Virus record (IMG/VR): IMGVR_UViG_3300042888_001544
Coordinates: 1-39,334 of that record
From: a virus
Length of the DNA: 39,334 nucleotides
Direction: 5' to 3' (one strand)
The notes beneath the pieces are model-generated. The model saw only the letters and a list, made by a program, of their open reading frames with translations. It did no database searches and was not told where the DNA came from. Shown piece after piece: positions 78 to 26,543 of the stretch. A program made the position numbers and the translations under genes. The stretch's first letter is position 1; each line of letters starts with the position of its first letter.

Positions 78-1988
78 ATGCGCTTAAACGGCCAACAAAA
101 CGTAATAGATTACAAGGCTTTAGCAAAGCGCTCCGGTCTGACACGCAAGTACAGTGTGAAGGTCGGAATACTTGGTACGCATTCTACAATTGGTCAAGGA
201 GCGCAGGCCATCGGTTCGGCAGCCATTCCGGGCAACCTGAGCCCTCTACGAAGCCCTATCAGGTCTGGTGCGTGGGGTGCCCTAACTCCCGGAAAACCAA
301 GAATCCCTGGCGGTACTGGTGGAGCAAATCGTGCTAGTCGTTGCCCAGAGGGGTATCAATACGGCGGTCGTTTTACCGACTCGCGTTTTTCCACATGTGG
401 CGCAAAACTGTTTGACATACCTTCTGCTATTGGTGTGGCAATCGGAGCACTAAGAAGAATAGCCCGTGGCGCTAGAGCAATTGCAGGACAGTCAACCCCA
501 ATCACTGGCGAGACTCCACAAGATTCAATAGTTGATTCAAGACGTCCCCAGATTCCGAGAGTCGGAAACCCCAACCCAGTAGCACGCGCGGCTGCAGCAA
601 AAAACATTGTCTCTCAAATCGGGCAGTCTGATGCGGCTGTCGTAAGAATGGTCAGAAAAGACGGGTTTGCGTTAGAACCAGTAGTTCCAGCACAGGTACT
701 AAGAGCGATTCCAGACAACAGAGACATGGAAGGCGCTGATTACATATTGTCAGTTCAGGGCCTTCCTCAACTAGGCGGAGAAGAACTTGGACTCCTCTCA
801 AATACTGGGGTAACAAAACTTACGTACGTTCTTCCAGGAGGCTCAACGCTGTCCCTTGAAAAGAAGAGACAACTAACTGTTGGTGAAAGAAGAAAACTTG
901 GACGCACGGTTAATGCTGCGTCAAAAATTGACATTACCAATGACCCAACTGCACGATTAAAAGAAGTGGTTGCTCAAACTGGTGACGGAATAGGTTATTC
1001 AGAAAATTTCATAAATGTAAAAAACCCCAATGAAGTTGTTTCCGCAGGTGGGAAATCACTCCCACGATGGGCTGATGAATTGTTTGGTAAGGGCAGAAAA
1101 GCGAAGCCACTAGCCAATGCAGAAAGAGCAACAGACTCAAATAGCGCCGTAGGAAAAAACATAACAAGCGTTGACGCTGCAGTTGACCAAATAATGTCTG
1201 GAAGACCACTTTCGGAAATTGACCCAATGATTTTACAGCAAGCACTTACAAAGGCAAACGTATTCAAGAGACAAAAATTGGACCAAAGAAGAGAATTGCT
1301 TGAAACGCCTAATGGCAATAAGTACATGCTCTATTCCTCGTCTGGAAAATATGAGCACCTTGGTCAAAAACTTGCAAGCGATATCCAGCAGCATCTTGGT
1401 CTTGAGTCGCCAGACGTTTTCTTTGTCGGTGAAGGAGATAAGAGAAAATACATAGTTGAGGATGCCTCTTCTCTAATTAGAGGATTTCAGGTTGACCGCA
1501 GGCGCAAATTCTCTGACTACAAACCAGAAGATGTGGCAAAAATGCTTGTATCCGACTGGCTCACAGACCAGAGAGACAGAGACCCTGGTTCTATAGTTCC
1601 AGTTTCAAATGGAACAGACACGAAACCGGTTGTTACCAATAACTTCACTTCCGGACTTGCGGACCTTGATGAAGTGTCAATTGTTGAGCGTCAAAAACTG
1701 ACCTTCTCTCAATTCATGGATGTAAAAAGAACTGAAACATACTCACAGTATTTTCAAAACCTGCAGCAACAGCAAAGATTTGCCTTCAGAAGAGAGATTG
1801 ACGCTCTACTATTAAGAGCAAGACAATTTAACTTTACACAATTCAAAAATCGCCTTTACAGTGATGGTCGCTTAACTGATGCTGAAAAAGCCCACCTAAA
1901 TATTATTGGGCGTATTTTAGAAACAAGAATTCAAAACTACGCAGGTAGTAGGGAAAATTTAATGGAAATCCTCGGAGTCAAAAAATGA
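78..1988 (+). CDS. Large head-module protein with two-Cys motif and possible degenerate kinase-like region
   Basis: 636 residues from the ATG at 78. The frame is open to the left edge, so the true start may lie further upstream. The N-terminal 90 residues are Gly/Pro/Arg-rich and low in complexity. Next comes a two-cysteine segment (C89 to C107, with GYQYGG and a C-terminal CG) that resembles short Cys modules in two neighbouring proteins. Residues about 405-560 look weakly like a HipA/phosphoinositide-kinase fold: a strand with KYMLY, a helix with ASDIQQHLGL, and a catalytic-loop-like DQRDRDPGS at 497-505. That resemblance is my inference and no standard kinase motif is complete. The stop overlaps the next start by 4 bases (ATGA), so the two are translationally coupled. 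Position just before the capsid genes suggests a virion or head-assembly role. Arg is mostly AGA, unlike the capsid gene. Confidence 0.7.
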   Translation: MRLNGQQNVIDYKALAKRSGLTRKYSVKVGILGTHSTIGQGAQAIGSAAIPGNLSPLRSPIRSGAWGALTPGKPRIPGGTGGANRASRCPEGYQYGGRFTDSRFSTCGAKLFDIPSAIGVAIGALRRIARGARAIAGQSTPITGETPQDSIVDSRRPQIPRVGNPNPVARAAAAKNIVSQIGQSDAAVVRMVRKDGFALEPVVPAQVLRAIPDNRDMEGADYILSVQGLPQLGGEELGLLSNTGVTKLTYVLPGGSTLSLEKKRQLTVGERRKLGRTVNAASKIDITNDPTARLKEVVAQTGDGIGYSENFINVKNPNEVVSAGGKSLPRWADELFGKGRKAKPLANAERATDSNSAVGKNITSVDAAVDQIMSGRPLSEIDPMILQQALTKANVFKRQKLDQRRELLETPNGNKYMLYSSSGKYEHLGQKLASDIQQHLGLESPDVFFVGEGDKRKYIVEDASSLIRGFQVDRRRKFSDYKPEDVAKMLVSDWLTDQRDRDPGSIVPVSNGTDTKPVVTNNFTSGLADLDEVSIVERQKLTFSQFMDVKRTETYSQYFQNLQQQQRFAFRREIDALLLRARQFNFTQFKNRLYSDGRLTDAEKAHLNIIGRILETRIQNYAGSRENLMEILGVKK

Positions 1989-4900
1989 AAAAAGTATCTA
2001 CCCTATTTGATGCGTTGCGTAATGAAAAGTTTGCTATTGCTGTTCAGGACGACTATGGAGTTAAATACTACGGCTCTGAAGGTCAAGCAAGAGAATGGGC
2101 GGACTGGGCAAACTCTTTTAATACCAAGACACTTGACACAAATAATCTTCCAGCAGGAATTATTCAGGGTCCATATAAAAACGTTAGTGAGCATTCTCTC
2201 AAGTCCTTACTGAATGCTTTTGGTAACAACGTTACGGAAATTAACAACTCTTTCACCGACTCTAAGGCGTACTCATATAAAAGTTCCATGAAGATGGATA
2301 ATGGCGCTCGCGTTCCAGCAGTAATGGACACACCAATTGGGCACTTTACTAAATCCCAATACGCAAGCGCAGTAAATTACAAAGGTCTAGTTATTCGTAC
2401 TCAAATCAAAGAAGGAAGTTTTCTTTTTGAGGCAAAAGTAAATAATTATGCATTTAACTTTGAAAACTGGATGTACAACTCAACTCCTTCAAAAGCGGAG
2501 ATTAAATCCCTTCGCAACAGAATTGATACAAACGTAGGTCGTTCTTCGGAAAGACGTTTAGGAATGAAACTGAAGGCCGCCCTCGTTGAAAGAGACGGAC
2601 GCTACAGAATTGGGTATGCACAAACCCTAGAAACCAAGTCGCTTGAAGATTCTCTTGAGGTAAAAGGAATTGGCGAAAGAATAGGCGGAGGAGCACGCAT
2701 CGGAAGAAGAGCGGCTCGTAGTATGGCCATGTTTGACCCAAAGGCTTGGGACGGCGATGGTGACGGCGTAGTTCAAGAAGGTACTCCTTTTGAGAGACCA
2801 GCAATTCCTGGAGTCAACGACAAAACAACTGGTGGAGTTGTTGATGCAGATGCTGCAAAAAAGGCATGGAAAGAATCTCAGAAGACTCCAGGCAGTTCAA
2901 CGCCTTCAAGAGAGTCAAGCCCTAGACGCAGGGTTTCCAACGCAGCAGGCTCAGCAGATAGACAAGTTTTTACTACTCGCACGCCAGCCGCAGCAGGTCG
3001 CAAAATACCTGACTCAAAGCCGATAAGTAGAAGCGGTCTAGCGTCACGAACACAGGCTGATATTGATAAAGAAGTATCAAAGCAAGTCACAGACACGGCA
3101 AAAGAAGTTCTTACCAAGAAATCAACGTCCACCGATTTACGTTCACTGATTAGTGGCCTCGGTCCTGACGGAGCAACAGAACTAAGCAGAGACCAGCAAG
3201 ACAGAATTAACGACATTATTGATGCGTTTGATAATGACGAATATGAAAATAATGAAGATTTTATTTCGGAAATTGCAAATGTTTTGCAAAAAAAGATTCC
3301 CGTAAATCAAAAACCAAAACAAACAGGCATGCGTTCACGTGTTGGTAAAGCACAAATGGATAGACAGGTTCAGGGTCTTGCGTCACGTAGTGGTCGTTCA
3401 AAAACAAAATCAAAACTTAAAGCAACACCAGGCCGTGATGCTGTTGACGAAAAAGATGGTTCCCTTTGGGCTTCACTTACTCCGGAACAACAGGATGTTG
3501 TAAAGAAAAACACACAAGCAGCGTACGACGGACTTCAGACATACATCAAGAAAGATAAATACCTAAGCACGTGGTGGAATGACTTTTTGAGTCTTAATCG
3601 CAAAAAGAAAGCAACTGACGCAGACGGAAAACCCTGGTCCGACCAGTCAAGAATTTCTGGAGAAGCATTTACTTCTTTTGAAGTTGCGTTAAACGGTGCT
3701 CTTTCTGGTGAAAATTCAGACATAGCGTCTGCAGAGTCTGGTCTTGCAGCAATGAGGGCCACTCTGTCCGATGCTGAAATCAAAAAAGCAGAAAATAGAA
3801 TTGCAGCACAGAAAAAAAGAGTTGAAAGACTTCAAAAAGTCTTAGACGACCTTAGAACTTATGACCAAATGGATAAATCTGACGACTGGTCGCTTCTTGA
3901 GCACCTTCACCCAGAACAAAGAAAAAAGTCTTTTGGTCTTGGACTTAGCAAGAGTGAAGCCGACATGACGGTAAGTCCTTTTGCTGATGGAAAACTTCCA
4001 AAGGGAATGAAGGTTGGGGAGCCATCAACCATCTTTGAAGAAGTTGGTGGAATGAAGAGAGCCGCTCCACGACTCATCGGAGAAAAAGGTGACGCAAAAC
4101 TTGAAGACCTTGCAAACAGAATTCTTCGCCCGAATCCGCAAAGAGCAGCACGTCGCGCTGTTAGAAAACAGAAAAAGGCTGGTCGTTCAGGTTTCAGAAT
4201 TGAACAAGAAGACAAACCTGATATTACAAGCAAGATTAAAAAAAGAATTAAAAAAGCCAAACGAGCAGTCAAAAGAACCTTTGGAAAACAAAGAAACGAA
4301 TCAAAAATTCTTAACGGAATCAGAAGAGAACAAACTGTTAGAATTTTTGAAAGAGACCCAGATGGAAAAATTGTTATTGGAAAAGAAACAATTCAACTAC
4401 TTGACGAAGTCGTTAATAAGGCACGCCAGAATAACGGTCGTGGAGAATTCAAGGGTCAAGCAGACGCAAACATGCTCCTTGGTTTCTTGTGGGAAAACAA
4501 TGGCTTCAACAGACAGCCAGCCCGCTTATCGGAAGATGAAGCAATGGCTTTGATTGATGCTGGATGGCACCCAATCAAGAGAGGCGTTTCTGCTGAAGAA
4601 TATGCGGATGAATATTTAACAGAATCTCGCAGAAGAATTACTGGTTCCAACGGAGAAATGGAAGGACCTGGAGAATACTGGTCAAATGCTGTTTCAACAA
4701 ACTGGGATGACCCAAGATATTGGGGTAAACCGACCGAAAGCAATGGATTGTTTGGATTTCTAAGTCCTGATTATAGGGTTGCTTCAAGAGTTGATAGAGA
4801 ACGTATGGCTTCGGAATATCAAAAGTTTGCACAAGCATTTGAAAATGTAATTTCTGTAATGCCCAAAGGCGAAGCAGAAAAAATGGAACCCGCAGATTTC

Positions 4901-5272
4901 ATGAGAGAACTACGTACCGCTCTTTCAAGGAACGTTGCAGACGGCGACCCAGTATGGGATGGCGAAGTTGGACAAATGTGGTCTTCGTTGATGAGTGCTT
5001 ACGAATCATCCAGTGGACCAGAAAAAACACAACTATGGAATGTAATTAATTTTATGTCTACTCAACTTACAAGACAAACAAGATGGGAAAACTATGTTCC
5101 TTTAATTTTAGGCTACGATGGCATTGATACCGGAGACAACACAGTAAGAACTGGTGGAACGGCCGCTGGAAAACAAGTCCTTATTTTCAATAGACAGGGC
5201 CTTGCTGTTCTTGACACGCCAATAAGCATTAAGGGAATTAATGACATTCTTAAGGAAGCAGATAAAAAATGA
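1985..5272 (+). CDS. Large structural-type protein with EF-hand-like tag and coiled coil
   Basis: 1095 residues, function not recognised. The N-terminal 240 residues are globular with no known motif. Residues 250-272 hold the tag FDPKAWDGDGDGVVQ plus EGTPFERP, a Ca-loop-like Asp array (D256, D258, D260) that recurs in two other large proteins here. Residues about 275-480 are Ser/Thr/Arg-rich and disordered-looking, with two GLASR motifs (351-355 and 464-468). A coiled coil lies near 595-630 and a strongly basic Lys/Arg helix near 748-770. The C-terminal 300 residues are folded-looking, with Trp-rich segments. ATGA overlaps join it to both neighbours. Size, charge and context fit a minor head or internal virion protein. 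It could also be a delivered effector whose enzymatic part I cannot identify. Confidence 0.75.
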   Translation: MKKVSTLFDALRNEKFAIAVQDDYGVKYYGSEGQAREWADWANSFNTKTLDTNNLPAGIIQGPYKNVSEHSLKSLLNAFGNNVTEINNSFTDSKAYSYKSSMKMDNGARVPAVMDTPIGHFTKSQYASAVNYKGLVIRTQIKEGSFLFEAKVNNYAFNFENWMYNSTPSKAEIKSLRNRIDTNVGRSSERRLGMKLKAALVERDGRYRIGYAQTLETKSLEDSLEVKGIGERIGGGARIGRRAARSMAMFDPKAWDGDGDGVVQEGTPFERPAIPGVNDKTTGGVVDADAAKKAWKESQKTPGSSTPSRESSPRRRVSNAAGSADRQVFTTRTPAAAGRKIPDSKPISRSGLASRTQADIDKEVSKQVTDTAKEVLTKKSTSTDLRSLISGLGPDGATELSRDQQDRINDIIDAFDNDEYENNEDFISEIANVLQKKIPVNQKPKQTGMRSRVGKAQMDRQVQGLASRSGRSKTKSKLKATPGRDAVDEKDGSLWASLTPEQQDVVKKNTQAAYDGLQTYIKKDKYLSTWWNDFLSLNRKKKATDADGKPWSDQSRISGEAFTSFEVALNGALSGENSDIASAESGLAAMRATLSDAEIKKAENRIAAQKKRVERLQKVLDDLRTYDQMDKSDDWSLLEHLHPEQRKKSFGLGLSKSEADMTVSPFADGKLPKGMKVGEPSTIFEEVGGMKRAAPRLIGEKGDAKLEDLANRILRPNPQRAARRAVRKQKKAGRSGFRIEQEDKPDITSKIKKRIKKAKRAVKRTFGKQRNESKILNGIRREQTVRIFERDPDGKIVIGKETIQLLDEVVNKARQNNGRGEFKGQADANMLLGFLWENNGFNRQPARLSEDEAMALIDAGWHPIKRGVSAEEYADEYLTESRRRITGSNGEMEGPGEYWSNAVSTNWDDPRYWGKPTESNGLFGFLSPDYRVASRVDRERMASEYQKFAQAFENVISVMPKGEAEKMEPADFMRELRTALSRNVADGDPVWDGEVGQMWSSLMSAYESSSGPEKTQLWNVINFMSTQLTRQTRWENYVPLILGYDGIDTGDNTVRTGGTAAGKQVLIFNRQGLAVLDTPISIKGINDILKEADKK

Positions 5273-5600: not shown

Positions 5601-7976
5601 ATGGAAGATTCGCTTGTTGGTAAAATTGCTGCCGTTAGGCAAGCAGCGGACATGGGCTGCTTCGGCGCGCATCAAATTTCAAATGGCGATTGGCTTCCAT
5701 GCTCATCAACTAAACAGTTTTTGACAATTATGAACGGATTTGATGTCAAGTCAAGAATTTCTCTTGACGAGATGGAGAACTGGTCTTCAATAAGAAAGTC
5801 AAAAGGCAAAAAACGCAAGAAGCGTTGGGAAAAACTTCGCGAGAGAAGAATTCTAGGAATTGAATCACTTGACAACGGTGGTCTTGTTTCTCCAAGAAAT
5901 TCAATGAATATGGTTAATGGTGGCACTAACCCCCCAATAACTTATGGTGCTTCAAATCCTTCAAGCATGTCTACGAAGAGCATTCAGCCAGCATTCATGC
6001 CCAGAGACAATGACCCTGACGTATTTGTGGACATTGAATCAGCAAGAAAAAGAGCACAACAACTTGGATGCATCGGTATAAGTAGAAGAATGTCAAAAGG
6101 CGGCAAAACCGTATGGATGCCATGTACCAACATTACCGACTACAACAATTTGACAGGAATGACTGCTCTTGGAAGAAATAATCTTCAGAAAAGAAATGAA
6201 AAAATAGTCAGAACCGTTATAAAAGAAAATCTTAAAAAGAAAAAAACAACGATTCAAGAAGATATATACGGCAAGGCTCTTGGCCCAAGAATACGAGGCA
6301 TAGCCCGTGCGGCAATGTCTAGATTTGACCCTGATGCTTTTGACGGAGACGAAGATGGAATTATCCAGGACGGAACAGCGTTTGAAAGACCCAACACTCC
6401 GAATGCTCGCATCCCCAAGACTGTAGATAGGGAAGTTTCTCCCTCCGAAGTTTCGGCAGTACGCAAGTGGATGAGTGCCATGACTTCTTCAGATATGGAT
6501 TCCTTCCGAGGCGAACCGATTGAAGCATACGATGGTGTTCCTGGTTCAAGACGTGGCTTGGCATCTAGTGGGCCCGGTTTCATTATTGACCCCAAGGGTC
6601 CAAAACAAATGGGCGGAAGAATGGCACCAAAGCCATTGGCCATAACAGAACTAAGAAACCCAGAAGCCAGTCCGACCAATCCGTTTAGAAATCTTGGTGG
6701 AAGATTGATGAGCAAATTGATTAGAGGAATGGTAAAGCCCGAACACAGACGTAAGCAAGAGAGAACAACCTATCTAATTGGAGGCAATACTGGTTCCGGA
6801 AAAACCACCGTACTTGACGAACACTTAATACCAAAAGGATTGGTTCCTTCACACGAAGAGGCTGCCCTTATTGACCCAGACTTTATTAAGAAAGGTCTTG
6901 TTGGATATGACGATGGACAAGGCGCTGGTCGTGTTCACAGAGAGTCTCAAGCATCAACCGACAAGACAATCAGGGATGCCGTTTTGGACGAACTGGACAT
7001 GGTAATTACGGGTTCTGGGGCATCAAGACAAATCCAACACATGCGTGAAGCGTCTGAGCGTGGTGAAAAAGTAGTGGGCCACTGGGTTCATGTTCCGCAA
7101 CGAGAAGCATCTAGACGCATTAAGAAGAGAGTGGATGAGACCAACAGGTATATACCTGACAACACCGCCCACATGGCACAAAGCATTCCTAAGGTTATTT
7201 CAACAGGCTTTGAAGAAGACTTACTAGACGAGTTCTATTTATGGGACAACGATGTTCCAGCAGGTTCACCACCAAAACTAATTGCAAAAAAATCCAAAGG
7301 AAAAGATTTTGAGATATTTGACCAGTCAAAATTTGAAGAATTTGCTGGAAGTAAAAAATGGGCAGACACGTGGGTGGAAACGTCAGAAGACAGAGACGTG
7401 TCAAGAAAAGGTTTTGAGTCCTCAAGTTACACAGGCAAAGAAGCCGCAGTTGCTTTAAGAGAGTCTGGTTTTGAAGTAATCATTGACAAAAATATAGAAG
7501 TTCGTCTTCCTGCAGGAAGTGATGCAGAAAAATTCTTTATAGAACGAGTTCTACCATATATGCCAAACAAATTTGGAAGAACGAACACACACGCGTCACG
7601 ACTTACCCTGCCAGGGATTCCAATTGTTGAAGACGTACAAAAGTTGCTCGGGGTGAGTATTGATAAAAGAAAAATTGTTGACAAAAACTATCGTAAAAAA
7701 TTTAAAATGCAACTCATGTCAAACGACCTAGAAGTTTTAGCAGAACTTTTTGCTAAAGCCCCTATTGTTGGTCCAAACGGCGAATCAAGGTTTGGCGATA
7801 TGTTGCTTACTAACGTTGGTGTTGAGTTTGATGAAACAGTAAAGCAAATTGCTAAAAAGGCTGGTTTTTTGGAAAAAGAAATTTCAATGTTGATAAGTGA
7901 AGGGTTCACGAAAGAAGATATTGAGAAAATGTCAAAAGAAGAAATACAAGAACTACTAGACGCGCTTCCGGAATGA
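5601..7976 (+). CDS. Virion-module protein with zeta-toxin-like P-loop kinase domain
   Basis: 791 residues. Two short two-Cys modules open the protein: C20/C34 (GCFGAH...WLPC) and C157/C175 (GCIGIS...WMPC). The shared tag FDPDAFDGDEDGIIQ is at 242-256, and a GLASS motif at 319-323. The enzyme-like part follows: Walker A GGNTGSGKT at 394-402, then LIDPDFIKKGL (D425, D427) in the place where zeta-family kinases bind the acceptor, then GAGRVHRESQ and VGHWVHVP, typical of the zeta/AAA kinase core. Zeta toxins phosphorylate UDP-N-acetylglucosamine; the substrate here is unknown. The C-terminal 250 residues are a separate domain I do not recognise. No epsilon-type antitoxin lies next to it. Immediate proximity to the capsid gene suggests packaging with the virion rather than plasmid-style addiction. 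The kinase fold is well supported, the toxin role is not. Confidence 0.75.
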   Translation: MEDSLVGKIAAVRQAADMGCFGAHQISNGDWLPCSSTKQFLTIMNGFDVKSRISLDEMENWSSIRKSKGKKRKKRWEKLRERRILGIESLDNGGLVSPRNSMNMVNGGTNPPITYGASNPSSMSTKSIQPAFMPRDNDPDVFVDIESARKRAQQLGCIGISRRMSKGGKTVWMPCTNITDYNNLTGMTALGRNNLQKRNEKIVRTVIKENLKKKKTTIQEDIYGKALGPRIRGIARAAMSRFDPDAFDGDEDGIIQDGTAFERPNTPNARIPKTVDREVSPSEVSAVRKWMSAMTSSDMDSFRGEPIEAYDGVPGSRRGLASSGPGFIIDPKGPKQMGGRMAPKPLAITELRNPEASPTNPFRNLGGRLMSKLIRGMVKPEHRRKQERTTYLIGGNTGSGKTTVLDEHLIPKGLVPSHEEAALIDPDFIKKGLVGYDDGQGAGRVHRESQASTDKTIRDAVLDELDMVITGSGASRQIQHMREASERGEKVVGHWVHVPQREASRRIKKRVDETNRYIPDNTAHMAQSIPKVISTGFEEDLLDEFYLWDNDVPAGSPPKLIAKKSKGKDFEIFDQSKFEEFAGSKKWADTWVETSEDRDVSRKGFESSSYTGKEAAVALRESGFEVIIDKNIEVRLPAGSDAEKFFIERVLPYMPNKFGRTNTHASRLTLPGIPIVEDVQKLLGVSIDKRKIVDKNYRKKFKMQLMSNDLEVLAELFAKAPIVGPNGESRFGDMLLTNVGVEFDETVKQIAKKAGFLEKEISMLISEGFTKEDIEKMSKEEIQELLDALPE

Positions 7977-8115: not shown

Positions 8116-9477
8116 ATGTCAGACCAAGCAAGACTTACAGAATTGCAATCAACCCTTCGTGCCAAGATGGCAGACAACAAGGCGATTGCAGACTCATTCC
8201 GTATTGAAGAAGGAACCGTTGTTGTCAACGCTCAGCAAAAGAGCGCATTTGACAAAAACATGACCGACATCAAGGAAATCAAGGGACTCATTGAGGGCCT
8301 TGAGGCAATGAACACAGTTGAATCATGGGGCTCACAAGCACCAGCAGAATCAGTTGCAGTTGCTGCAGCAGCAGGCTATTCATTGAAGGGCCTCGGCGCT
8401 TCATACTCAATCGGTGACTTGTTCCTCAACTCACCAGAGTTCAAGACCCTTTTGGGTGGTAAGAATGGCGCAAACATGCCTTCCCCATTCCAACTCGGAG
8501 CATCACTCACAACTCACGGCGCATACGGCGTTAAGGACGTTTACTCAGCACTTCCATCAGGCACACTAGCCCGTGGTGCATCTGCTGACTTCGGTTCAAT
8601 CCAGCGCGACCCAATGGTCATGTCACCACAGCGTGTAAAGCGTGTTCGTGACTTGTTCCCAAGCCGCACCACTTCAGCAGCAGTTATTGAATACTTCCGC
8701 ATGCTTGGTTTCACCGCAACAGGCGGCGGAACCAACAATGCAGGAGTTGTTGCTGAGCGTAACGCAGGAAACACCGCGTTTGCCGCTAAGCCACAGTCCT
8801 CAATGGTATTTGAAGGCCACCAGGCCCCAGTACGCACCATTGCTCACTGGGAAGCAGCACACCGTAACGTCCTTGCGGACGAGCCACAGTTGCGTTCAAT
8901 CATTGACAACGAATTGATGTACGGTCTCCGTCTTCAAGAAGATGCTCAAATCCTCAACGGTGATGGAACTGGCGAAAACCTTACTGGTGTTCTTCAGACT
9001 TCAGGTATCCAGAACTACTCATGGTCAAGCGGTTTGTACTCAGCAACCGCAGGAATGTCAGACACAAAGGCAGACGCAATCCGTCGCGCCGCTACACTGT
9101 CGTTCCTCGCTTACTACGAGCCATCTGGTGTCGTTCTTCACCCGAACGATTGGGAAGACATTGAGTTGACCAAGGATGGCAATGGCCAGTATCTCGTTGC
9201 AGTTTCGGTTGCAATGGGCGGCGAGCCAAAGGTATGGCGTTTGCCAGTCGTTGAGACCCCTGCAATTCCAGAAGGCACCGCACTTGTCGGCGCATTCGGT
9301 ACGGGCGCACAGTTGTACGACCGTGAGCAGGCTTCAATCCGCATCTCAGAGCAGCACTCGGACTTCTTCGTTCGCAACGCAATCGTTGTACTCGCAGAAC
9401 AGCGCCTCGCCCTTGCGGTTAAGCGCCCAGAGTCATTCGTCAAAGTTACATTTGACAACGCTCCAACAGCCGAATAA
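8116..9477 (+). CDS. Major capsid protein, HK97 fold
   Basis: 453 residues. The start is supported by AGGAG at 8102-8106. Residues 1-70 are helical and Gln/Lys/Glu-rich, like the delta/scaffold segment of HK97-type capsid precursors. The body shows typical family features: a long E-loop-like stretch with VAERNAG and FEGHQAPVRTIAHWE (residues about 212-245), the spine-helix segment RSIIDNELMYGLRLQEDAQIL with NGDGTGENLTGVL, and a C-terminal A-domain with VVLHPNDWEDIEL. No prohead protease is recognisable in the window. Codon use differs from neighbours: Arg is almost always CGT/CGC, against AGA in the genes before it, which fits very high expression. A strong terminator follows directly, so it can be expressed as a short, abundant transcript. 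Confidence 0.92.
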   Translation: MSDQARLTELQSTLRAKMADNKAIADSFRIEEGTVVVNAQQKSAFDKNMTDIKEIKGLIEGLEAMNTVESWGSQAPAESVAVAAAAGYSLKGLGASYSIGDLFLNSPEFKTLLGGKNGANMPSPFQLGASLTTHGAYGVKDVYSALPSGTLARGASADFGSIQRDPMVMSPQRVKRVRDLFPSRTTSAAVIEYFRMLGFTATGGGTNNAGVVAERNAGNTAFAAKPQSSMVFEGHQAPVRTIAHWEAAHRNVLADEPQLRSIIDNELMYGLRLQEDAQILNGDGTGENLTGVLQTSGIQNYSWSSGLYSATAGMSDTKADAIRRAATLSFLAYYEPSGVVLHPNDWEDIELTKDGNGQYLVAVSVAMGGEPKVWRLPVVETPAIPEGTALVGAFGTGAQLYDREQASIRISEQHSDFFVRNAIVVLAEQRLALAVKRPESFVKVTFDNAPTAE

Positions 9478-10861: not shown

Positions 10862-11865
10862 TGGATTCAATTTTTTCTTTTGACGAAAGCAAATGGTCTG
10901 TTTTTGATGTTTCGTACTCTATTGAACTCAAAGAACAGTACCCAGAGATTTGGGCTATGTCTGGTGGCTCCAAGTCAGACTACATACATGAAGTCTTGTT
11001 AGAGATATTTGAAAGTGGTGGAGTGGCGACAACACCGGAACAAGTGGAAGTTCTTGAACTGAGAGAATCATGGATTAACAGGCATGTTTACGACAGTCAG
11101 CCAGCAGGTTACGTGGCTCAAGTTAAGTGGCTTGCCGTATCTTCAAATGGCGAAGCGTGGCAGAAAAGAAAAATCAACGAAGAAGTTTCAAAATTCCACA
11201 CAAGAACAGAATGGATTCTTGAAAAAGGTCTTCCCTGCTGGAAGGGCTACGAGCAAGTCGGAATGAAGATGGGGAAAAAGGGGAAAATGGTTCCCAACTG
11301 TGTCCCCATTAAGACCAAGAGCGCTCAACTCAAAGACCCCAAAGGCGGCCTTACCGCCGCAGGACGAAAGTTCTTTAAACGCACGGAGGGGGCAGACCTG
11401 AAACCTGGAGTAAAAGGCGCTGCCAACACCCCAGAGAAGATGCGCAGAAAAGGGTCGTTCCTCACCAGATTCTTCACCAACCCGTCTGGGCCAATGAAGG
11501 ACGACAGGGGACGCCCTACGCGTCTTGCTTTGTCGGCTGCAGCGTGGGGGGAACCTGTCCCTCAGGACGCCTCAGACGCTGCTGCGCTGGCTGCTAAGGG
11601 CCGCAGAATGCTTGATAGGTACGAGAGAGCCAAGAAAAAAGATTCTTTTGAAAACATTGAAACAAAAGTATTTACTGATTCTTCTAATGAAGGAAAATTC
11701 AAGAGTTATATTGATTCTTTAGACGACAAAAAGTTTGAAGAATTATTTCCAGACGATGACCAAAGTAGTTGGAATATACCAACGGAAGAAAAGTGGATAT
11801 TTGATGTTGCTGGTGCTTTCCTGAGAAGGTCAATAACAAACAGACGGCGCAAAAGAAGAAGGTAA
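10861..11865 (+). CDS. DUF6321-like head-module protein with two-Cys motif
   Basis: 334 residues. Residues 1-120 are acidic and unassigned. A two-Cys segment runs from C126 to C147 (PCWKGYEQVGMKM...VPNCVP), a module familiar from many phage and giant-virus proteins. Residues about 158-257 match what I remember as DUF6321: KDPKGGLTAAGRKFF, PGVKG, EKMRRKGSFLTRFFTNP and RLALSAAAWGEP. The function of that domain is unknown, and the accession is from memory. A short acidic segment and a basic tail (RRKRRR) end the protein. TAATG overlap upstream and a 3-base gap downstream place it in the operon. The conserved basic core suggests nucleic-acid contact in the virion or after entry, which is inference. 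Confidence 0.75.
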   Translation: MDSIFSFDESKWSVFDVSYSIELKEQYPEIWAMSGGSKSDYIHEVLLEIFESGGVATTPEQVEVLELRESWINRHVYDSQPAGYVAQVKWLAVSSNGEAWQKRKINEEVSKFHTRTEWILEKGLPCWKGYEQVGMKMGKKGKMVPNCVPIKTKSAQLKDPKGGLTAAGRKFFKRTEGADLKPGVKGAANTPEKMRRKGSFLTRFFTNPSGPMKDDRGRPTRLALSAAAWGEPVPQDASDAAALAAKGRRMLDRYERAKKKDSFENIETKVFTDSSNEGKFKSYIDSLDDKKFEELFPDDDQSSWNIPTEEKWIFDVAGAFLRRSITNRRRKRRR

Positions 11866-19751: not shown

Positions 19752-20012
19752 AGGTCAAAGCGAACATCTGTACGACGAACACATGTACTACAGGTACCTA
19801 TGGAAGTGCCTATGGACCCACCATATGAACACCTCATACAAACAGTGTCAAGTAAATAGCCCATCAACCATGACGCCATACCTGATTGTGAATATCACCC
19901 TCTGGCATATCCAAAAGTGCGCCTCTCAAGCACGCTTTTGCACACACATCAATCACATCACCAAGTCGCATCAAACTATTAGTTACACACACTTCACACA
20001 CCACACAGCGAG

Positions 20013-23000
20013 GTGTTCTACAATGAATCAATGCCCTTCTCTTATGACATAGAACCAAACGACTCGTCTCGTCTAAGACGTCACATGTCAAGAGTAAAGA
20101 GTGATGACGCTCAAAGAATAGAAGTCAAAGCACTAGGCATGAACCTAGGTCAACTCGCAAGAGGCGCACAAGTCTTTGACCCTAACGCATACGATGGTGA
20201 TGGTGATGGACTAGTACAAGACAGCACACCCTTTGAAAGACCGGCGGTGTTGTCTAACATTGCCTCCATAGCAAGAGGTCTCTCAAGCACCACGGGTGGC
20301 TACGGGTCATACACACCAGCAGGTTCTTGGACAGTAGGCCTCACCAATGAAGAGGTGGCAGAGAGGGCAATACCTGACAACCCTGCTGTTTTCATTGGCA
20401 TGCTCAACGCTCAAGGCCCCATGGGTAGTACAGATGTGTACCTACTAGAGGCTCTCAACGATGTTATCTTTGACCCTGAGGGCGTTGCTAAAATACGTCA
20501 ATCACTAATTAAAACATTAGATGATAGACCTGCATTACGTTCTGCCTTTGACAGGTTTGGTTGTCCACCCATAGGTCTACACCCCAAGGGCAAGCCATAC
20601 AAAGGTCAAGCACATGGTCATTACGCTATCTTCATTAACGAAGCAGCCATAGATGAGGGCGCAGTATCACGCTGGCTAGGTAAAACACCGGCACTAGCAA
20701 AACTATTCAATGAATCCATGATAGCGCCCAAGATAAAGGGCGTGAAGCGAGCATTCTCAGGAGACAACGCAGAGGACACCATCACTCATGAGTGGGGTCA
20801 CTACTTGAACTACCTAGTAGCAAACATCGCACCAGACGCACAACTGCGTGAACTCGCAGCGGCAATGGCATCAGACTCGTGGGGTTATGCACAGTGGAGA
20901 AGAACAGCATTCACAGCGTTACCCAAAGGGGCAGAAAGATTATTCTCCTACTTTGGCGAGATTACAAGCAGTGAAAACTGGAACAAGAAACATGAACTGC
21001 CCGATGAGGATGTTCCGTTCATCAAGAGCGTGTATGGAACCACATCACCAGTTGAGTTCTTTGCCGAATCAGTGCAAGCATACTTCTCCCCCAACCCTAA
21101 AGATAGTGAACTTCTCAACTACGAAGGAACAGTGATTGTTGAGCAAATGCTTGGCATTAGACAAGTATCTCGTAGTGGATTTTCGTCACAAACAAGCGGT
21201 CTCAAAAGCAGTACGGGTAACTCCATGCGTGGTAAGACGCCACAAGAAATTGCAGACATTGTAGTACCTAAGACCAAAGAGGAAGCAATCGCATTAGCCG
21301 ACGCACATAACGCTTTGCTTGTTGACCCAGGTGGTACTCCATACACCGCATCAGAACCAAACACACTGAAGTTGATTACCCCCAAGGGCATTGACGGTAT
21401 GGACTTCTCACCAGAAGCAGTGTCTCGTATGAAAGAGATGATAGTAGAAGCATTATCAAACAACCCCAACTTCTATGAAGCAGTACAAAGATTCGGCATG
21501 CCACCTGTCATGACAACCAAACCAGGGGAAAGACTAGATGGCTCCTACGCTGTTGCGGGTGTAGAAGGTTTTCCTGCTATCACTATTGACTCTACTGTTA
21601 GGGAAGAAGCCCTAGTCAATGGGTTCCCTAATCGCATGTGGGAAGATGAACCATTCATCAAGGGAACATCACAATTCCTAATGGACCCCACGAGTGATGG
21701 GATGTTCGTTCATGAATGGGGTCATTATCTGAATCGTTTAGTGATGAACGTACACCCAGATGAAGACATGAAAGACTTAGCACGCTTTTGGTGGCTAGAT
21801 ACTTGGGACCTAGATGAATACATACCACGTATTTCAAAACTTCTACGCAGATTCATAAAGCCAGACGACAGAGTGTCAGGTAGATACTCTTACGCTCAGA
21901 GATTCGGTAAAGCAGTAAAAAATAATAAGTCAGTCAACTTCACGGGTTACCCCCATGTAAAGACTCAGTATGGGCAGTCACAACCATCAGAAGCGTTTGC
22001 CGAAGCAGTGACAGCAGTGCTCTCTAGCGACATAGACGAGAAGGATATGGTCAGTCCTGAACTACGCAAGGACGTTCTTGACATACTCGGTTTCTCGCCA
22101 TCAGCAAAAGAAGTAGATAGAGCGGGTAGTTCAGAAGGAAGAAGTGCTGGATTCGCCTCAAAGACAGTAACAAGAGGTCTTGGCGTAAGGCTTATTACCA
22201 AGTCCGACCCGTTCACTCCACTCAATGGTCCTGACTGGCTAAAAGATGCTACGGATGAAGAAATAGCAGAGGCTGTCGTACCTACAAACATGGATGACTC
22301 CATAGCGCTAACCGTGATGAACACGGCGTACGGTGCAGACCCAGCAAATTTTCCCACAGAAGCAACAGTAATTGCTGAACTAGCGGAAAGATTGCTATTC
22401 AAAGCAGAATGCACAGACAGTACGGGTGCCCTAATTCGTGATGCAAACGGAAACGCTGCTTTTGTGTTTGATGTACCGATTGACTTCACTCCAGCAGGTA
22501 GACAAAAAGCCAAAGACATGCTCAGACGAATGATGGCAGAATCACCAGAGTTTGCATGGATGATTAGACGCTTCGGGTGTCCACCGGTATTGATTATGGA
22601 TGAACAAAAACTTACCGACCTAAGAAACCAGGTTCAGGCGCTGCGTGATTCAGGAATGGACATACAGTTGCCTCCCCATCTTGATAGTGACTCTATTGGT
22701 GGTTTTTCAATAGCAACTCTTGGTATTACGCTTAGAACAAAACCAGGCAGAGATGACTTGCCGATGGGCTTCAATAGAGGGATAGCAGCGAGAAGAAGAA
22801 CGGGAAGAAAAATAACTAACCCAGACGGCACCATAGAGGACGAAACAGAACACTGGATGAACAACTTCGGTATTTCTCTTCCTGATGTCGGTATTCATGA
22901 ATGGGGTCACTGGTTTTATTCAACCGTTCTAGGAAACAAATTACTATACAAGACGTATGGAATTAGAGGAAAAATGGGAGACAGACAATCTCGTCTTTCG

Positions 23001-26000
23001 TACCTATTTCCTGGTGTTCCTACTGCGGACGTTGAAAAAATGACAAAAGAATTCCTTGATGCTTTTGACGCAGAGGGTTTTATTCCTTTCAACACCATGA
23101 GTGAAATGCATATTGACTCAATAGCCAAAGCGGCATACAGAAGCATAGGTAACAACTTAAGAAACAGACCACTACCAGAACAACTGGCTGCTGCTCAAAG
23201 GTTCACCGACTTAGTACAAGACTATTTAAATAACGTAGTTAACTCATCACGCGGGTGGTCTCCATCACGCGCACAAGAGTTTGCTGACCAAATAGCGCTT
23301 GAGTTTCCGTACCTAGTAAATGACATGCCTCCACTAATAGCGGGAACCTATGCAACAGCAACTCGTCAAGAACTGTGGGCAGAGGCAGTATTACTATTCT
23401 CTTCACCTGACTCAAAGTTGAAAGCCAAGTACCTAACGCCAGAGATAGAAGCGTTTATTGCTTACGCTTTTGGGTTGAAGCCAGACAGAGACCCCAATAC
23501 TCCATATCAAAAACCTTGGGCATCTCGCAGTGGCTTCTCTTCTTCTTCACGGGTAAGAAGACTTCATGCAGCAGAGGACAGTATTCCCGACAGAGTCTCT
23601 GACAAAGATGACGGGTTAGCAAGCAGAACTACTGGAGCATCAACTGCAAAGATGAGTCGTGAAGCCTCTAGTACTTCACGTTTCACTGTTGGTGACTACG
23701 ACTTTGACATAACCGACGAAGACCTATCTACATACGATTGGGATACCGCCTACGACCAGTGGACAACATGGTCGGGTAACTGGCGTATGCGTCACTTATC
23801 CTCAGCAATGATGGGTATAGAACAGCAACCAACCAAGGGTGGCGAAGAGTCATTATCAACCGTCCACGAGATAATGCGTTCGGGTGAACTGTCAAACGCA
23901 CCAGACCACGTCAAAGAATCGGTTCGTGAATCTCTAATCAACACTCACAAGACTATGGAAAAGATATCCATGGGTGAGACTATTAGTGATAGACCCCTCT
24001 ACAGAGGCTTGGGTTCTGTTCCTGACGATTCAGAGATACTCATGGCAGAACAAGGCGAGACGATAACATTCCCACTTAGTGCTTTCACTCCAGACAGAAG
24101 CCTTGCTACAACGTTTGCTGACATGAATGCCGAGAGTGACAAAAAAGTAATCCTCCAACTCAGAGATGGTGCCCATGTAGCATCTAGCGATTACACGACA
24201 CAAATAAGAGACCTAGAAAGCGACTGGATAGAAGTACCTATTGAATCTGTTACTCAGGGAGAATTTACTGTCGTCTCCAAGAGCGAGAAAGACGGGTACA
24301 CAGTAGTAGAACTGTCTCATGTAAATACGTTTGACCCATTAGCAGGAAGAATGATTCCCACAAACGCTCGTGAAGGTTTTGCTTCTTCCAGTATGAGGCC
24401 AGAGCGACGAGTGTCAGATAGTGCCATCCGTACGCTGACGGACAATATGGACTTCCTTCGTGACAATCCACCAATCGGCAAGGGTGGCAAAGACCTAGAT
24501 GACCAGTGGGCACAGAAGACAATAGAGAAACTACGCAGTGGGGAGATATCCCAAGAAGACGCATTTGACCTAATGAATGTCGTCATTGAGATACTCAACA
24601 ACGGGTTCAACGAAGACCCAAGCCAGAAAGAAAACCCAGACGGCAAACTTCTTGCTTACCAAAAACTATCCAAGCGTCTACGCAGGCTCGCTGTCGGCGC
24701 TATGGACAAAGACGATATGGAAGACTTCCGCAGAGAACAAGGCATTGGTCCTACTGCGATTACGGAACCAAAGCCAGGTCCTTATCCTGGTGGTCGTTTT
24801 GGCTTCTCATCTACGACAGCACGGGAAAATTTGTCTACACGGACAGACCAGCGCATTAGTGACATTGACACACAGGTGGCAGAACTTGAATCCGTCAATG
24901 CTCGCCTGACTAGAGCAATAAGTGAACTTGAAGCCACGGGTAACTGGGAAGGAGTTAAGCATGACGTGTTCATCACCGAAGGCAATGACCCAAAGACTTA
25001 CAGCAAGGAGCAGTTAGAGAGCAACGGCTGGTCTGAAATAGTAGTGCAAGACTCAAGAAATGCTATATCGGCAAGGCAGAGAAAGATAGATGTTCTCAAG
25101 AAAGATAGAGACAGTCTTGAAGATGACAAGAAACGCCTAACCGGTGACTATCCAGAAACAACAGTACTCATTGAGGAGTTGCTTCTTGACGAAGCCAATG
25201 TTGAGAAGGTCAAAGCAAGAGCACTAGAAGTCAGTTCAATGAGTGAAAACCAGAGAATGGAAAGATTCACAGACCCGAACGACCCAAATGCAATATATGT
25301 AGTCCACTACGGAGCAGCAAAACTAGAAGGCGGAGAACTTGACCCTGCTCGCTCACGAGGACAAGTTGGACAAGCAATTATGGGCAATACTCGTCAAATC
25401 AATGACGAAACGGCCAGATATATGGTCGGAAAGCGTGATGATGCCAAGCGGGACATATCCATCCTTGAAGACATGAAGCGTCAGATTGATTCTGATGGAG
25501 TTGTTGATTTTGACGCAATAAGAAAAGCCGACCTCAAGGACCCACAAAGAGTTGGAAGAGCAAGAATGCTGTTGGGTCTTAATCGCAGTGACCCAGAAAG
25601 TTCAACAATCACCCCTGAAGCACGACAGATTGCCAATATTGACGGCGCTATCGGAGACAAGAACATAGTGCTGTCCAGACTTGACAAAGTAGCGGACAAA
25701 TTGGTCGCAGACGACTATCAGTATTCCAGCACATACAGAGCATCATCGTTGCAAGACTTGTTCGGCTCGTATGGAGGAAGATACGCAGAGGGTGACGACA
25801 CAAAACGTTCATCAAACACGGGAATTCACATATTCAAAGTAAGAATTGGCGATGACGCAACCGAAGAAAACAACGTTGGTGAGACTCACCTTGTTGGTAA
25901 ACACACTCCGATTGCTTCTCTTGTTGTAGACAGTAATGCAAGTAGTGACAATCCTGGTCGTGAAATATGGAAGGGTTGGCTTGATTTGGTCATCCAACAG

Positions 26001-26543
26001 GACATCGGCAAGAATGATGCAATAACACTCTCGGAAGATGGAAGAATGCCAGACATGCCAGGACGTGAGATAAGAGGAAAATCGGTTCAATGGGTAGACC
26101 TAGCAACCAAGTCCTTTGTATCCAGTGCTCCGTCATTTGACACCAAGTCACTCAAGTACACAAAACCAGAGTTGCGTGAAAGAATCAAGAACCGTATTAT
26201 GGCTGGTAGCAAAGGTGGAAACCCGGGTCAGTGGTCTGCCCGCAAAGCGCAACTGGTTGCTTTGGAGTATCGTAAAGCAGGCGGTGGCTACAAGGGCGGC
26301 CTGCGTAAGACTCAGCGTTCGCTCAATAAATGGACACGAGAGAAATGGACAACTTCAGATGGAAAACCAGCGATTCGCAAAGGCGGCACTCGCCGTTACC
26401 TTCCTTCTACTGCTTGGAGTCGCCTTACGCCGGCACAGAGAGCGGCGACTAATCGTAAGAAAATCATCGGAAGTCGGCAAGGCAATCAGTTTGTTGCAAA
26501 TACACGAAGTGCAGAGAATGCTTCGCGCAGAGCGAGAAACTGA
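20013..26543 (+). CDS. Giant multidomain protein: three zincin repeats, ADP-ribosyltransferase-like and DUF5872-like domains
   Basis: 2176 residues. Start is GTG 20013; ATG 20031 is an alternative and neither has a well-placed Shine-Dalgarno. The tag FDPNAYDGDGDGLVQ is at 55-69. Three homologous zincin repeats (about 70-385, 395-710 and 740-1165) each open with an EEVAERAIP-like helix and fGxPPv segment, hold HEWGH (H259, H567, H962) and end in a distal ExxxE helix (E348FFAE352; EAFAE; ELWAE), a likely third Zn ligand. Residues 1205-1454 look like an ART: LYRGLG (R1331), FPLSAFTPD (S1356), DWIEVP (E1407); the ExE motif is not canonical. A coiled coil follows 1600. HYGAAKLEGGELDP (1765 on) is unassigned. 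Residues about 2048-2176 match what I recall as DUF5872. G[FL][AS]S motifs at 389, 713, 1174, 1201, 1455 and 1597 mark domain borders. Likely a virion-delivered polyvalent protein. Confidence 0.85.
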   Translation: MFYNESMPFSYDIEPNDSSRLRRHMSRVKSDDAQRIEVKALGMNLGQLARGAQVFDPNAYDGDGDGLVQDSTPFERPAVLSNIASIARGLSSTTGGYGSYTPAGSWTVGLTNEEVAERAIPDNPAVFIGMLNAQGPMGSTDVYLLEALNDVIFDPEGVAKIRQSLIKTLDDRPALRSAFDRFGCPPIGLHPKGKPYKGQAHGHYAIFINEAAIDEGAVSRWLGKTPALAKLFNESMIAPKIKGVKRAFSGDNAEDTITHEWGHYLNYLVANIAPDAQLRELAAAMASDSWGYAQWRRTAFTALPKGAERLFSYFGEITSSENWNKKHELPDEDVPFIKSVYGTTSPVEFFAESVQAYFSPNPKDSELLNYEGTVIVEQMLGIRQVSRSGFSSQTSGLKSSTGNSMRGKTPQEIADIVVPKTKEEAIALADAHNALLVDPGGTPYTASEPNTLKLITPKGIDGMDFSPEAVSRMKEMIVEALSNNPNFYEAVQRFGMPPVMTTKPGERLDGSYAVAGVEGFPAITIDSTVREEALVNGFPNRMWEDEPFIKGTSQFLMDPTSDGMFVHEWGHYLNRLVMNVHPDEDMKDLARFWWLDTWDLDEYIPRISKLLRRFIKPDDRVSGRYSYAQRFGKAVKNNKSVNFTGYPHVKTQYGQSQPSEAFAEAVTAVLSSDIDEKDMVSPELRKDVLDILGFSPSAKEVDRAGSSEGRSAGFASKTVTRGLGVRLITKSDPFTPLNGPDWLKDATDEEIAEAVVPTNMDDSIALTVMNTAYGADPANFPTEATVIAELAERLLFKAECTDSTGALIRDANGNAAFVFDVPIDFTPAGRQKAKDMLRRMMAESPEFAWMIRRFGCPPVLIMDEQKLTDLRNQVQALRDSGMDIQLPPHLDSDSIGGFSIATLGITLRTKPGRDDLPMGFNRGIAARRRTGRKITNPDGTIEDETEHWMNNFGISLPDVGIHEWGHWFYSTVLGNKLLYKTYGIRGKMGDRQSRLSYLFPGVPTADVEKMTKEFLDAFDAEGFIPFNTMSEMHIDSIAKAAYRSIGNNLRNRPLPEQLAAAQRFTDLVQDYLNNVVNSSRGWSPSRAQEFADQIALEFPYLVNDMPPLIAGTYATATRQELWAEAVLLFSSPDSKLKAKYLTPEIEAFIAYAFGLKPDRDPNTPYQKPWASRSGFSSSSRVRRLHAAEDSIPDRVSDKDDGLASRTTGASTAKMSREASSTSRFTVGDYDFDITDEDLSTYDWDTAYDQWTTWSGNWRMRHLSSAMMGIEQQPTKGGEESLSTVHEIMRSGELSNAPDHVKESVRESLINTHKTMEKISMGETISDRPLYRGLGSVPDDSEILMAEQGETITFPLSAFTPDRSLATTFADMNAESDKKVILQLRDGAHVASSDYTTQIRDLESDWIEVPIESVTQGEFTVVSKSEKDGYTVVELSHVNTFDPLAGRMIPTNAREGFASSSMRPERRVSDSAIRTLTDNMDFLRDNPPIGKGGKDLDDQWAQKTIEKLRSGEISQEDAFDLMNVVIEILNNGFNEDPSQKENPDGKLLAYQKLSKRLRRLAVGAMDKDDMEDFRREQGIGPTAITEPKPGPYPGGRFGFSSTTARENLSTRTDQRISDIDTQVAELESVNARLTRAISELEATGNWEGVKHDVFITEGNDPKTYSKEQLESNGWSEIVVQDSRNAISARQRKIDVLKKDRDSLEDDKKRLTGDYPETTVLIEELLLDEANVEKVKARALEVSSMSENQRMERFTDPNDPNAIYVVHYGAAKLEGGELDPARSRGQVGQAIMGNTRQINDETARYMVGKRDDAKRDISILEDMKRQIDSDGVVDFDAIRKADLKDPQRVGRARMLLGLNRSDPESSTITPEARQIANIDGAIGDKNIVLSRLDKVADKLVADDYQYSSTYRASSLQDLFGSYGGRYAEGDDTKRSSNTGIHIFKVRIGDDATEENNVGETHLVGKHTPIASLVVDSNASSDNPGREIWKGWLDLVIQQDIGKNDAITLSEDGRMPDMPGREIRGKSVQWVDLATKSFVSSAPSFDTKSLKYTKPELRERIKNRIMAGSKGGNPGQWSARKAQLVALEYRKAGGGYKGGLRKTQRSLNKWTREKWTTSDGKPAIRKGGTRRYLPSTAWSRLTPAQRAATNRKKIIGSRQGNQFVANTRSAENASRRARN

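What the first reader, a model, noticed from the sequence alone, without database searches (positions are those of the whole stretch)
20013..26543. Giant protein with three tandem zincin repeats plus ADP-ribosyltransferase-like and DUF5872-like domains
HEWGH occurs three times (residues 259, 567, 962), each followed by an ExxxE helix, inside repeats that share flanking features. An ART-like R/S/E arrangement (R1331, S1356, E1407) and a conserved C-terminal domain follow. Tandem triplication of an apparently intact zincin site in one phage polypeptide is unusual. This fits the concept of polyvalent proteins injected with the genome to disarm the host. All three sites keep both His and the Glu, so selection for activity is likely.
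Basis: partly seen in the sequence, partly recalled or inferred. Interest (0 to 1): 0.88.

Follow-up and report, generated by a model that had tools for sequence, protein, structure and literature searches.

The report
Punctuated giant polyproteins in phage heads
The giant phage protein really carries three lethal-factor-like metalloprotease domains and an ADP-ribosyltransferase domain, but the larger surprise is that it and several unrelated giant proteins of the same phage family are divided into modules by one short 'punctuation' sequence that is spelled differently in each phage lineage yet largely the same way throughout one genome, which suggests a phage polyprotein system read by a shared enzyme.

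Summary
One open frame (2176 aa) has HEWGH at 259, 567 and 962, in three homologous repeats. Each repeat keeps HExxH plus Tyr-x6-Glu-x3-Glu. Fold and profile searches place the repeats with anthrax lethal factor/PPEP (M34-like); residues ~1205-1454 match ART structures.

The tandem zincins are not the most unusual part. P0001 is one of three to five giant proteins per genome in a family of uncultured (likely actinobacterial) phages. They share a grammar: N-terminal domain, a DxDxDG 'tag' (FDPxAxDGDxDGxxQ[E/D]GTPFERPA), then modules separated by a short motif, G-[FLM]-[ASR]-S. The motif was never found before the tag (0 in 11,727 aa) and 174 times after it; new contigs gave 1 before and 163 after. 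Its spelling is lineage-specific but shared across unrelated proteins of one genome (permutation p=2e-4), with different codons at almost every copy. Modules are gained, lost and moved at the motif. One tagged giant carries the prohead protease.

Best reading: head-cargo polyproteins cut at the motif by a phage protease acting in trans. Boundary recognition is strongly supported; cleavage, the protease, packaging and injection are inferred. New variant of the polyvalent-protein theme.

The parts
20013..26543 (+). Giant polyprotein P0001 (2176 aa from GTG; probable true start ATG at 20031, residue 7)
   Evidence: single open frame; 92-100% copies in other contigs; relatives L107, L109 and G005 begin at MPF[ST]Y/MPFTF
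20175..20246 (+). Tag FDPNAYDGDGDGLVQDSTPFERPA (residues 55-78)
   Evidence: same tag in two other window proteins and in 43 proteins of 13 contigs; 235 relatives in viral contigs
20277..20288 (+). Boundary motif 1, GLSS (89)
20289..21176 (+). Zincin A (93-388); HEWGH 259, Y341, E348, E352
   Evidence: VIA-align Z 9.8, rmsd 3.6, 169 aa to lethal factor 571-772
21177..21188 (+). Boundary motif 2, GFSS (389)
   Evidence: pLDDT<50 linker; L in place of F in 38-40% relatives
21189..22148 (+). Zincin B (393-712); HEWGH 567, Y653, E660, E664
   Evidence: Z 7.4 to lethal factor over model residues 324-615
22149..22160 (+). Boundary motif 3, GFAS (713)
22161..23531 (+). Zincin C (717-1173); HEWGH 962, Y1113, E1120, E1124
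   Evidence: homologous to B; residue set kept; fold not tested separately
23532..23543 (+). Boundary motif 4, GFSS (1174)
23613..23624 (+). Boundary motif 5, GLAS (1201); missing in the 39% relative
23625..24374 (+). ADP-ribosyltransferase-like domain (1205-1454)
   Evidence: Foldseek to Vis ART E=2.2e-4, prob 1.00; VIA-align Z up to 9.4
24375..24386 (+). Boundary motif 6, GFAS (1455)
24387..24800 (+). Helical segment 1459-1596; a 27% similar segment lies in giant1 of G002 next to its own motifs
24801..24812 (+). Boundary motif 7, GFSS (1597)
24813..26021 (+). Module 1601-2003 (coiled coil plus conserved core); relatives differ completely after about 2003
26145..26495 (+). DUF5872-like basic domain (2045-2161), a separate gene in G001, G011 and G013
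1985..5272 (+). Second tagged protein (1095 aa); tag at residue 256, motifs GLAS at 351 and 464
5601..7976 (+). Third tagged protein (791 aa); tag at 248, motif GLAS at 319, then zeta-toxin-like kinase 383-524
8116..9477 (+). Major capsid protein; no copy of the motif
   Evidence: Pfam Phage_capsid 8.9e-44; alignment

Best explanation
P0001 is one of a set of phage polyproteins. Each tagged giant begins with an N-terminal region (in one of them the head maturation protease) and a Ca-binding-like tag, which I take to anchor or target the precursor to the forming head. Behind the tag, enzyme modules (here three M34-like zincins, an ART, helical modules and a basic DUF5872-like domain) are strung together by short unfolded linkers carrying G-[FLM]-[ASR]-S. 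One recognition factor per phage reads this motif in all the giants, which is why the spelling is largely uniform within a genome and changes together between lineages. The most likely factor is a phage protease acting in trans during head maturation (first candidate: the S78 prohead protease fused in giant1; second: the zincins) that cuts the precursors into separate enzymes, which are packaged and enter the cell with the DNA. Shown: domains, tag, motif, order, lineage-specific concerted spelling, modular exchange at the motif, the protease as one tagged protein. Inferred: cleavage, which protease, packaging, injection, host targets.
For: Motif enrichment: G[FL][AS]S occurs 7 times in P0001 versus 0.24 expected, maximum 3 in 2000 shuffles. 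Blind discovery of repeated gapped 4-mers gives GLAS (25 copies, five proteins), RGMxS (15), GLRS (15), GMRS (27 in G009), STRS (23), GFxSxT in different genomes; -log10 P 12-54 versus at most 7.5 in shuffles. The motifs are confined to the giants in most genomes (0 in other proteins of at least 200 aa), and codon strings are nearly all distinct (25 of 25, 15 of 15, 25 of 27), which speaks for selection on the peptide and against gene conversion. Between-family agreement within a genome is 0.73 versus 0.42 for F/L/M and 0.69 versus 0.36 for A/R/S, p=2e-4 each. Order: 0 motifs before the tag in 11,727 aa, 174 after in 57,462 aa; in new contigs 1 versus 163. Blind top motif of the same form, above shuffles, in 32 of 41 new loci (my count). 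Modularity: L006 and L009 differ by one 564-aa module exactly between two motifs, flanks 91-99% identical; one zincin module starts 14 and 13 aa after the motif in two different polyproteins of two genomes (57% identity), and one 151-aa unit ending at the motif occurs three times in two G009 proteins. All seven motifs lie in pLDDT<50 stretches. Giant1 starts with Peptidase_S78, E=1.7e-12 (phrog_80 1e-28). Precedent: the SPN3US prohead protease cuts 14 A-X-E sites in nine head proteins (PMC10052503); processing of polyvalent proteins by zincins was predicted (PMC5512222).
Against: No cleavage product has been seen; everything is sequence inference. The major capsid protein, normally a substrate of the prohead protease, has no copy of its genome's motif. 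In the window lineage two smaller giants use L while P0001 and giant1 mostly use F, so uniformity is not complete. The window alone is too small for blind discovery (6.5 versus shuffle maximum 6.6); the case rests on relatives. Nine of 41 new loci show no such motif, G008 is unclear, and G010 uses STRS. The junction before the DUF5872 domain in P0001 lacks the motif. Cultured relatives by protease (Gordonia, Brevibacterium, Streptomyces phages) have large head-region proteins without tag or motif. Pfam finds no zincin or ART in P0001.
Confidence: 0.6

Rival explanations
1. The motif is a docking or packaging peptide, not a cut site: a phage scaffold or capsid-lining protein binds each copy and holds the long protein inside the head; the protein is delivered whole.
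For: Trans recognition explains the concerted spelling equally well. Phage N4 virion RNA polymerase, which has a zincin domain, is packaged unprocessed (PMC5512222). The capsid protein lacks the motif.
Against: Docking does not require a copy at nearly every module boundary in disordered linkers, nor explain why the tag, the better targeting candidate, precedes the first motif.
Confidence: 0.2
2. The three zincins cut P0001 themselves (self-processing, as proposed for polyvalent proteins by Iyer et al.), and the motif is their site.
For: Complete M34-like site in A, B and C; prediction in PMC5512222.
Against: G002, G006 and G009 have the motif in four to five giants without a recognised P0001-family zincin protein in the stretches examined; their giant2 has HExxH but no Y-x6-E-x3-E. 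Any such cutter would have to act in trans.
Confidence: 0.15
3. The motif is only a flexible linker that serves as a recombination joint; modules are swapped there and no protein reads it.
For: Modules are exchanged at the motif.
Against: Copies differ at the DNA level while the peptide is kept, and spelling follows the genome rather than the module. A neutral linker predicts neither.
Confidence: 0.05
4. Ordinary polyvalent protein: zincins and ART attack host proteins after injection, and the repeats have no common logic with other genes.
For: Domain set matches the published class; ART and zincin folds.
Against: Leaves tag, motif and their sharing by three to five proteins unexplained. It is compatible with, and included in, the best explanation as the fate of the released modules.
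Confidence: 0.1

Closest known systems
Polyvalent proteins of phages and conjugative elements (Iyer et al. 2017, PMC5512222)
   Same: Large multidomain proteins mixing zincins, ARTs, kinases and nucleic-acid-binding domains; zincin processing already predicted; one to five zincin domains reported.
   Different: The words 'linker' and 'tandem' do not occur in that paper's main text, and I found no boundary motif, shared tag or concerted spelling across several proteins in the parts I read.
Prohead-protease maturation of internal head proteins (SPN3US gp245, phiKZ, T4)
   Same: One phage protease reads a short motif (A-X-E in SPN3US) in several head proteins in trans; some are ejected into the host.
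   Different: There 13 of 14 mapped sites remove N-terminal propeptides (PMC10052503); here up to about 11 sites per protein would separate successive modules, and the motif lacks the Glu.
M34 metallopeptidases (anthrax lethal factor, PPEP/Zmp1)
   Same: Fold, HExxH and Tyr seven residues before the third ligand Glu.
   Different: Phage-encoded, tandem, about 12-19% identity, no secretion or receptor parts.
R-S-E type ADP-ribosyltransferases (Vis, ExoS/ExoT)
   Same: Predicted fold of residues 1205-1454.
   Different: The proposed catalytic Glu is not fixed in the family.

Membership tests
Polyvalent proteins | several domains of disparate biochemical activity in one polypeptide | tested here: met
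   zincin and ART folds, DUF5872-like domain
Polyvalent proteins | delivered into the host with the DNA | not testable with these tools
   needs virion and infected-cell proteomics
M34-like zincin peptidases | HExxH with a downstream Glu ligand and a Tyr seven residues before it | tested here: met
   invariant H,E,H,Y,E,E in 15 domains of types A, B and D; C has Y1113 and E1120
M34-like zincin peptidases | fold of lethal factor domain IV / PPEP | tested here: met
   A: Z 9.8 over 169 aa, top 36 rows all of this family, next row 6.1; B: Z 7.4; Foldseek alone not significant, E>1; profile to lethal factor E=9e-4. C not tested on its own.
M34-like zincin peptidases | proteolytic activity | not tested
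   assay needed
R-S-E ADP-ribosyltransferases | ART fold | tested here: met
   Vis E=2.2e-4, prob 1.00; Z up to 9.4
R-S-E ADP-ribosyltransferases | conserved Arg, Ser and catalytic Glu | tested here: inconclusive
   R1331 invariant; S1356 and E1407 not kept in 28-41% relatives; E1411 invariant
DUF5872 | score above Pfam's curated cut-off | tested here: not met
   20.2 versus 27.5 bits; PHROG relatives strong
Prohead-protease-processed head proteins | phage head maturation protease present with head genes | tested here: met
   Peptidase_S78 in giant1 next to the portal gene in near-identical genome G012
Prohead-protease-processed head proteins | capsid protein and cargo share the cleavage motif | tested here: not met
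   no motif in the capsid protein N-terminus; so filed only as 'works like'
Prohead-protease-processed head proteins | observed cleavage at the motif | not testable with these tools
   mass spectrometry needed

The most novel reading that the evidence does not exclude
A phage counterpart of the RNA-virus polyprotein: four to five giant head-cargo precursors per virus, cut by one trans-acting phage protease at some 10-30 copies of a lineage-specific short motif, with cleavage site and protease co-evolving so that each lineage has its own 'punctuation' code and enzyme cassettes can be exchanged freely.
Probability: 0.55. Interest if true: 0.88.

Novelty: new variant of a known kind. Interest (0 to 1): 0.77.

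Why it matters
It has been proposed since 2017 that phage polyvalent proteins are processed into working units, but as far as I could find no general site or rule was known. Here the rule can be read from sequence: where the units begin and end, that one factor probably reads all of them, and that its specificity has changed several times. This makes the processing question directly testable with peptides and candidate proteases, gives a marker (tag plus motif) for finding head-cargo effector arsenals in uncultured phages, and lets unknown modules be cut out at their true boundaries for structure prediction and assay.

Tried and rejected
Rejected: assembly artefact or chimera (same frame in independent contigs). 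Rejected: gene conversion or DNA-level repeats behind the motif (codon diversity). Rejected as a general feature of actinophages: Gordonia DalanDe and GMA6, Brevibacterium Cantare and Streptomyces Gilgamesh, found through the protease, have neither tag nor motif. Led nowhere: Pfam and solved-structure sequence searches with the whole protein; tag against isolated phages, no match; giant2 against isolated phages, no match; zincin alignment against bacterial and archaeal genomes, no relative; motif in the capsid protein; literature on DUF5872, one passing mention; literature searches for an earlier description of the motif or of multi-site processing of phage polyvalent proteins, none found in the open library. 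The C-part structure model is weak (mean pLDDT 50.5), so only the ART part is used. Too weak to use alone: blind discovery on the window by itself; G008.
Full report
Observation. The frame 20013-26543 (+) is open over 2176 codons. HEWGH stands at residues 259, 567 and 962; no other long frame of the window has HExxH. Repeats A and B are homologous end to end (BLASTP E=2e-26) and B and C over their N-terminal part (E=2e-9). The frame is found again at 92-100% identity in other IMG/VR contigs, at 72% in L005/L006/L008/L009, and at 36-40% over the zincin region in further contigs. The window is a 39-kb linear virus record with a capsid gene (Phage_capsid 8.9e-44) and a WhiB gene (9.2e-13). WhiB points to an actinobacterial host; that is inference.

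Zincins. A 15-row alignment of A, B and D-type domains leaves ten invariant columns: G and S of the boundary motif, one Leu and one Pro, H, E, H, and Y-x6-E-x3-E. The same set is present in C (Y1113, E1120, E1124) and in relatives; a shuffled P0001 gives 0.27 such Y/E patterns in its whole length. AlphaFold2 on residues 80-1200 gave three folded blocks (mean pLDDT 63.6). Foldseek hits were not significant but dominated by lethal factor and PPEP-1. VIA-align put A on lethal factor 571-772 with Z 9.8, rmsd 3.6 over 169 residues; the top 36 rows were all M34, the next unrelated row 6.1; B aligned at Z 7.4. A sequence profile reached lethal factor at E=9e-4. The Tyr and third-Glu spacing is that of lethal factor and PPEP (general knowledge). 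A, B and C are therefore M34-like zincins with complete sites; activity is untested.

ART and C-terminus. Residues 1205-1454 match the Vis ADP-ribosyltransferase (Foldseek E=2.2e-4, probability 1.00) and other ARTs (VIA-align Z up to 9.4), in a model of otherwise low confidence (mean 50.5). The C-terminal 130 residues are a mobile basic domain found also in marine phages; in G001, G011 and G013 it is a separate gene just downstream of the giant.

The motif. Six of the seven G[FL][AS]S copies in P0001 stand at or beside the edges of the domains and the seventh 27 residues after one of them; chance expects 0.24 copies. Two further window proteins (1985-5272 and 5601-7976) carry the motif and share with P0001 the tag FDPxAxDGDxDGxxQ[E/D]GTxFERP. 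Following these proteins into relatives gave 13 contigs, up to 132 kb. Each well-covered one has three to five giant proteins of the same style: a protease-tag giant next to the portal gene, a zincin-bearing giant2, two tagged proteins upstream of the capsid gene, and in some a P0001 homologue.

Blind discovery. Without assuming a motif, I counted all gapped 4-mers in the giants. The best one was GLAS in G001 (25 copies in five proteins, 0.31 expected), RGMxS in G002 (15), GLRS in G006 (15), GMRS in G009 (27 in five proteins, 0.11 expected) and G007, SGLxS in G003, STRS in G010 and GFxSxT in G011-G013. Scores (-log10 P) were 12-54, against at most 7.5 in shuffles. In most of these genomes the motif was absent from all other proteins of at least 200 aa, and the codons differed at nearly every copy. 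The window on its own is too small to pass this blind test (6.5 versus 6.6).

Concerted spelling. Within a genome, different protein families agree in the F/L/M residue (0.73 versus 0.42 by permutation) and in the A/R/S residue (0.69 versus 0.36), p=2e-4 each. In the 39% relatives of P0001 the aligned boundaries 389, 713, 1174 and 1597 have L where P0001 has F. The same C-terminal module of giant1 follows GLAS, GMRS or GFSS according to the genome. A reader acting in trans is the simplest cause.

Grammar and cassettes. In 43 tagged proteins the motif never precedes the tag (0 in 11,727 aa; 174 in 57,462 aa after it). A tag search of viral contigs found 235 relatives. In 41 loci from contigs not used before, the blind top motif was of the form G-[FLM]-[ASR]-S, above shuffles, in 32 (my count from the table; several contigs are near-duplicates), and the order rule held (1 before, 163 after). 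L009 differs from L006 by a 564-aa module lying exactly between two motifs. One zincin module starts 13-14 residues after the motif both in giant2 of G001 and in the P0001 homologue of G011; a 151-aa unit ending in the motif is used three times in two G009 proteins. G001 and L107 carry a Nudix-like sequence (my reading of GALSLPGGLQDE, not searched) between two motifs. All four motifs of the first structure model and all four of the second (one site is in both) fall in stretches with pLDDT below 50, which cover 25% and 57% of the models.

Mechanism. A signal at module edges, read in trans, located in unfolded linkers, in precursors one of which carries the head maturation protease (Peptidase_S78 1.7e-12; phrog_80 1e-28), most likely marks cleavage. 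SPN3US gives the precedent (PMC10052503); zincin processing of polyvalent proteins was predicted by Iyer et al. (PMC5512222). Which protease is open: the capsid protein lacks the motif, which counts against S78; lineages without a recognised P0001-type zincin protein still have the motif, which counts against the zincins of P0001 as the general cutter. Docking without cleavage remains possible. My split of belief: motif read in trans as a boundary signal 0.9; that the reading is cleavage 0.7; that S78 is the cutter 0.45; packaging and delivery 0.7.

Novelty. The protein itself is a new member of the polyvalent class. The tag, the punctuation motif and its genome-wide concerted spelling I found described nowhere in the open papers searched, and isolated phages in INPHARED give no match to the tag. 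I therefore rate it a new variant of a known kind.

Noticed in passing
G011:C1:76219-76848 (in L089), G013:C1:54622-55284 (in L094), G001:C1:27696-28355 (in L068): The DUF5872-like domain that ends P0001 is a stand-alone gene directly after the giant in three related genomes, so it has been fused or split.
   Followed up: partly
window 5601-7976: Tagged protein with a zeta-toxin-like kinase module (PF06414, 2e-8) and two DUF3721 stretches, the better one at its N-terminus; in G011 and G013 the homologue gains a C-terminal zincin (HEWFH).
   Followed up: partly
window 10861-11865: Protein with DUF6321 (1.3e-29) just after the capsid gene, another small domain of unknown role.
   Followed up: no
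window 78-1988: 636-aa protein just upstream of the second tagged protein, with no Pfam or PHROG match; proteins of the same size stand at the same place in the relatives.
   Followed up: no
giants of G007, G010, L182, L183, L185: Giants of some lineages contain pentapeptide-like ANLxxA repeats besides the motif.
   Followed up: no
G010 and G008: The most distant lineages use STRS (23 copies) or an SRSxR-like string instead of G-[FLM]-x-S, perhaps a further change of the same code.
   Followed up: partly
Gordonia phage DalanDe gp27 (L095:14635-19536), Streptomyces phage Gilgamesh gp48 (L098:2764-16638): Cultured actinophages also have very long head-region proteins (1633-aa protease fusion, 4624-aa protein), without tag or motif.
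   Followed up: partly
window 20009-20031: The GTG start of the frame overlaps a GAGGTG Shine-Dalgarno-like string; ATG at 20031 fits the start of relatives.
   Followed up: partly
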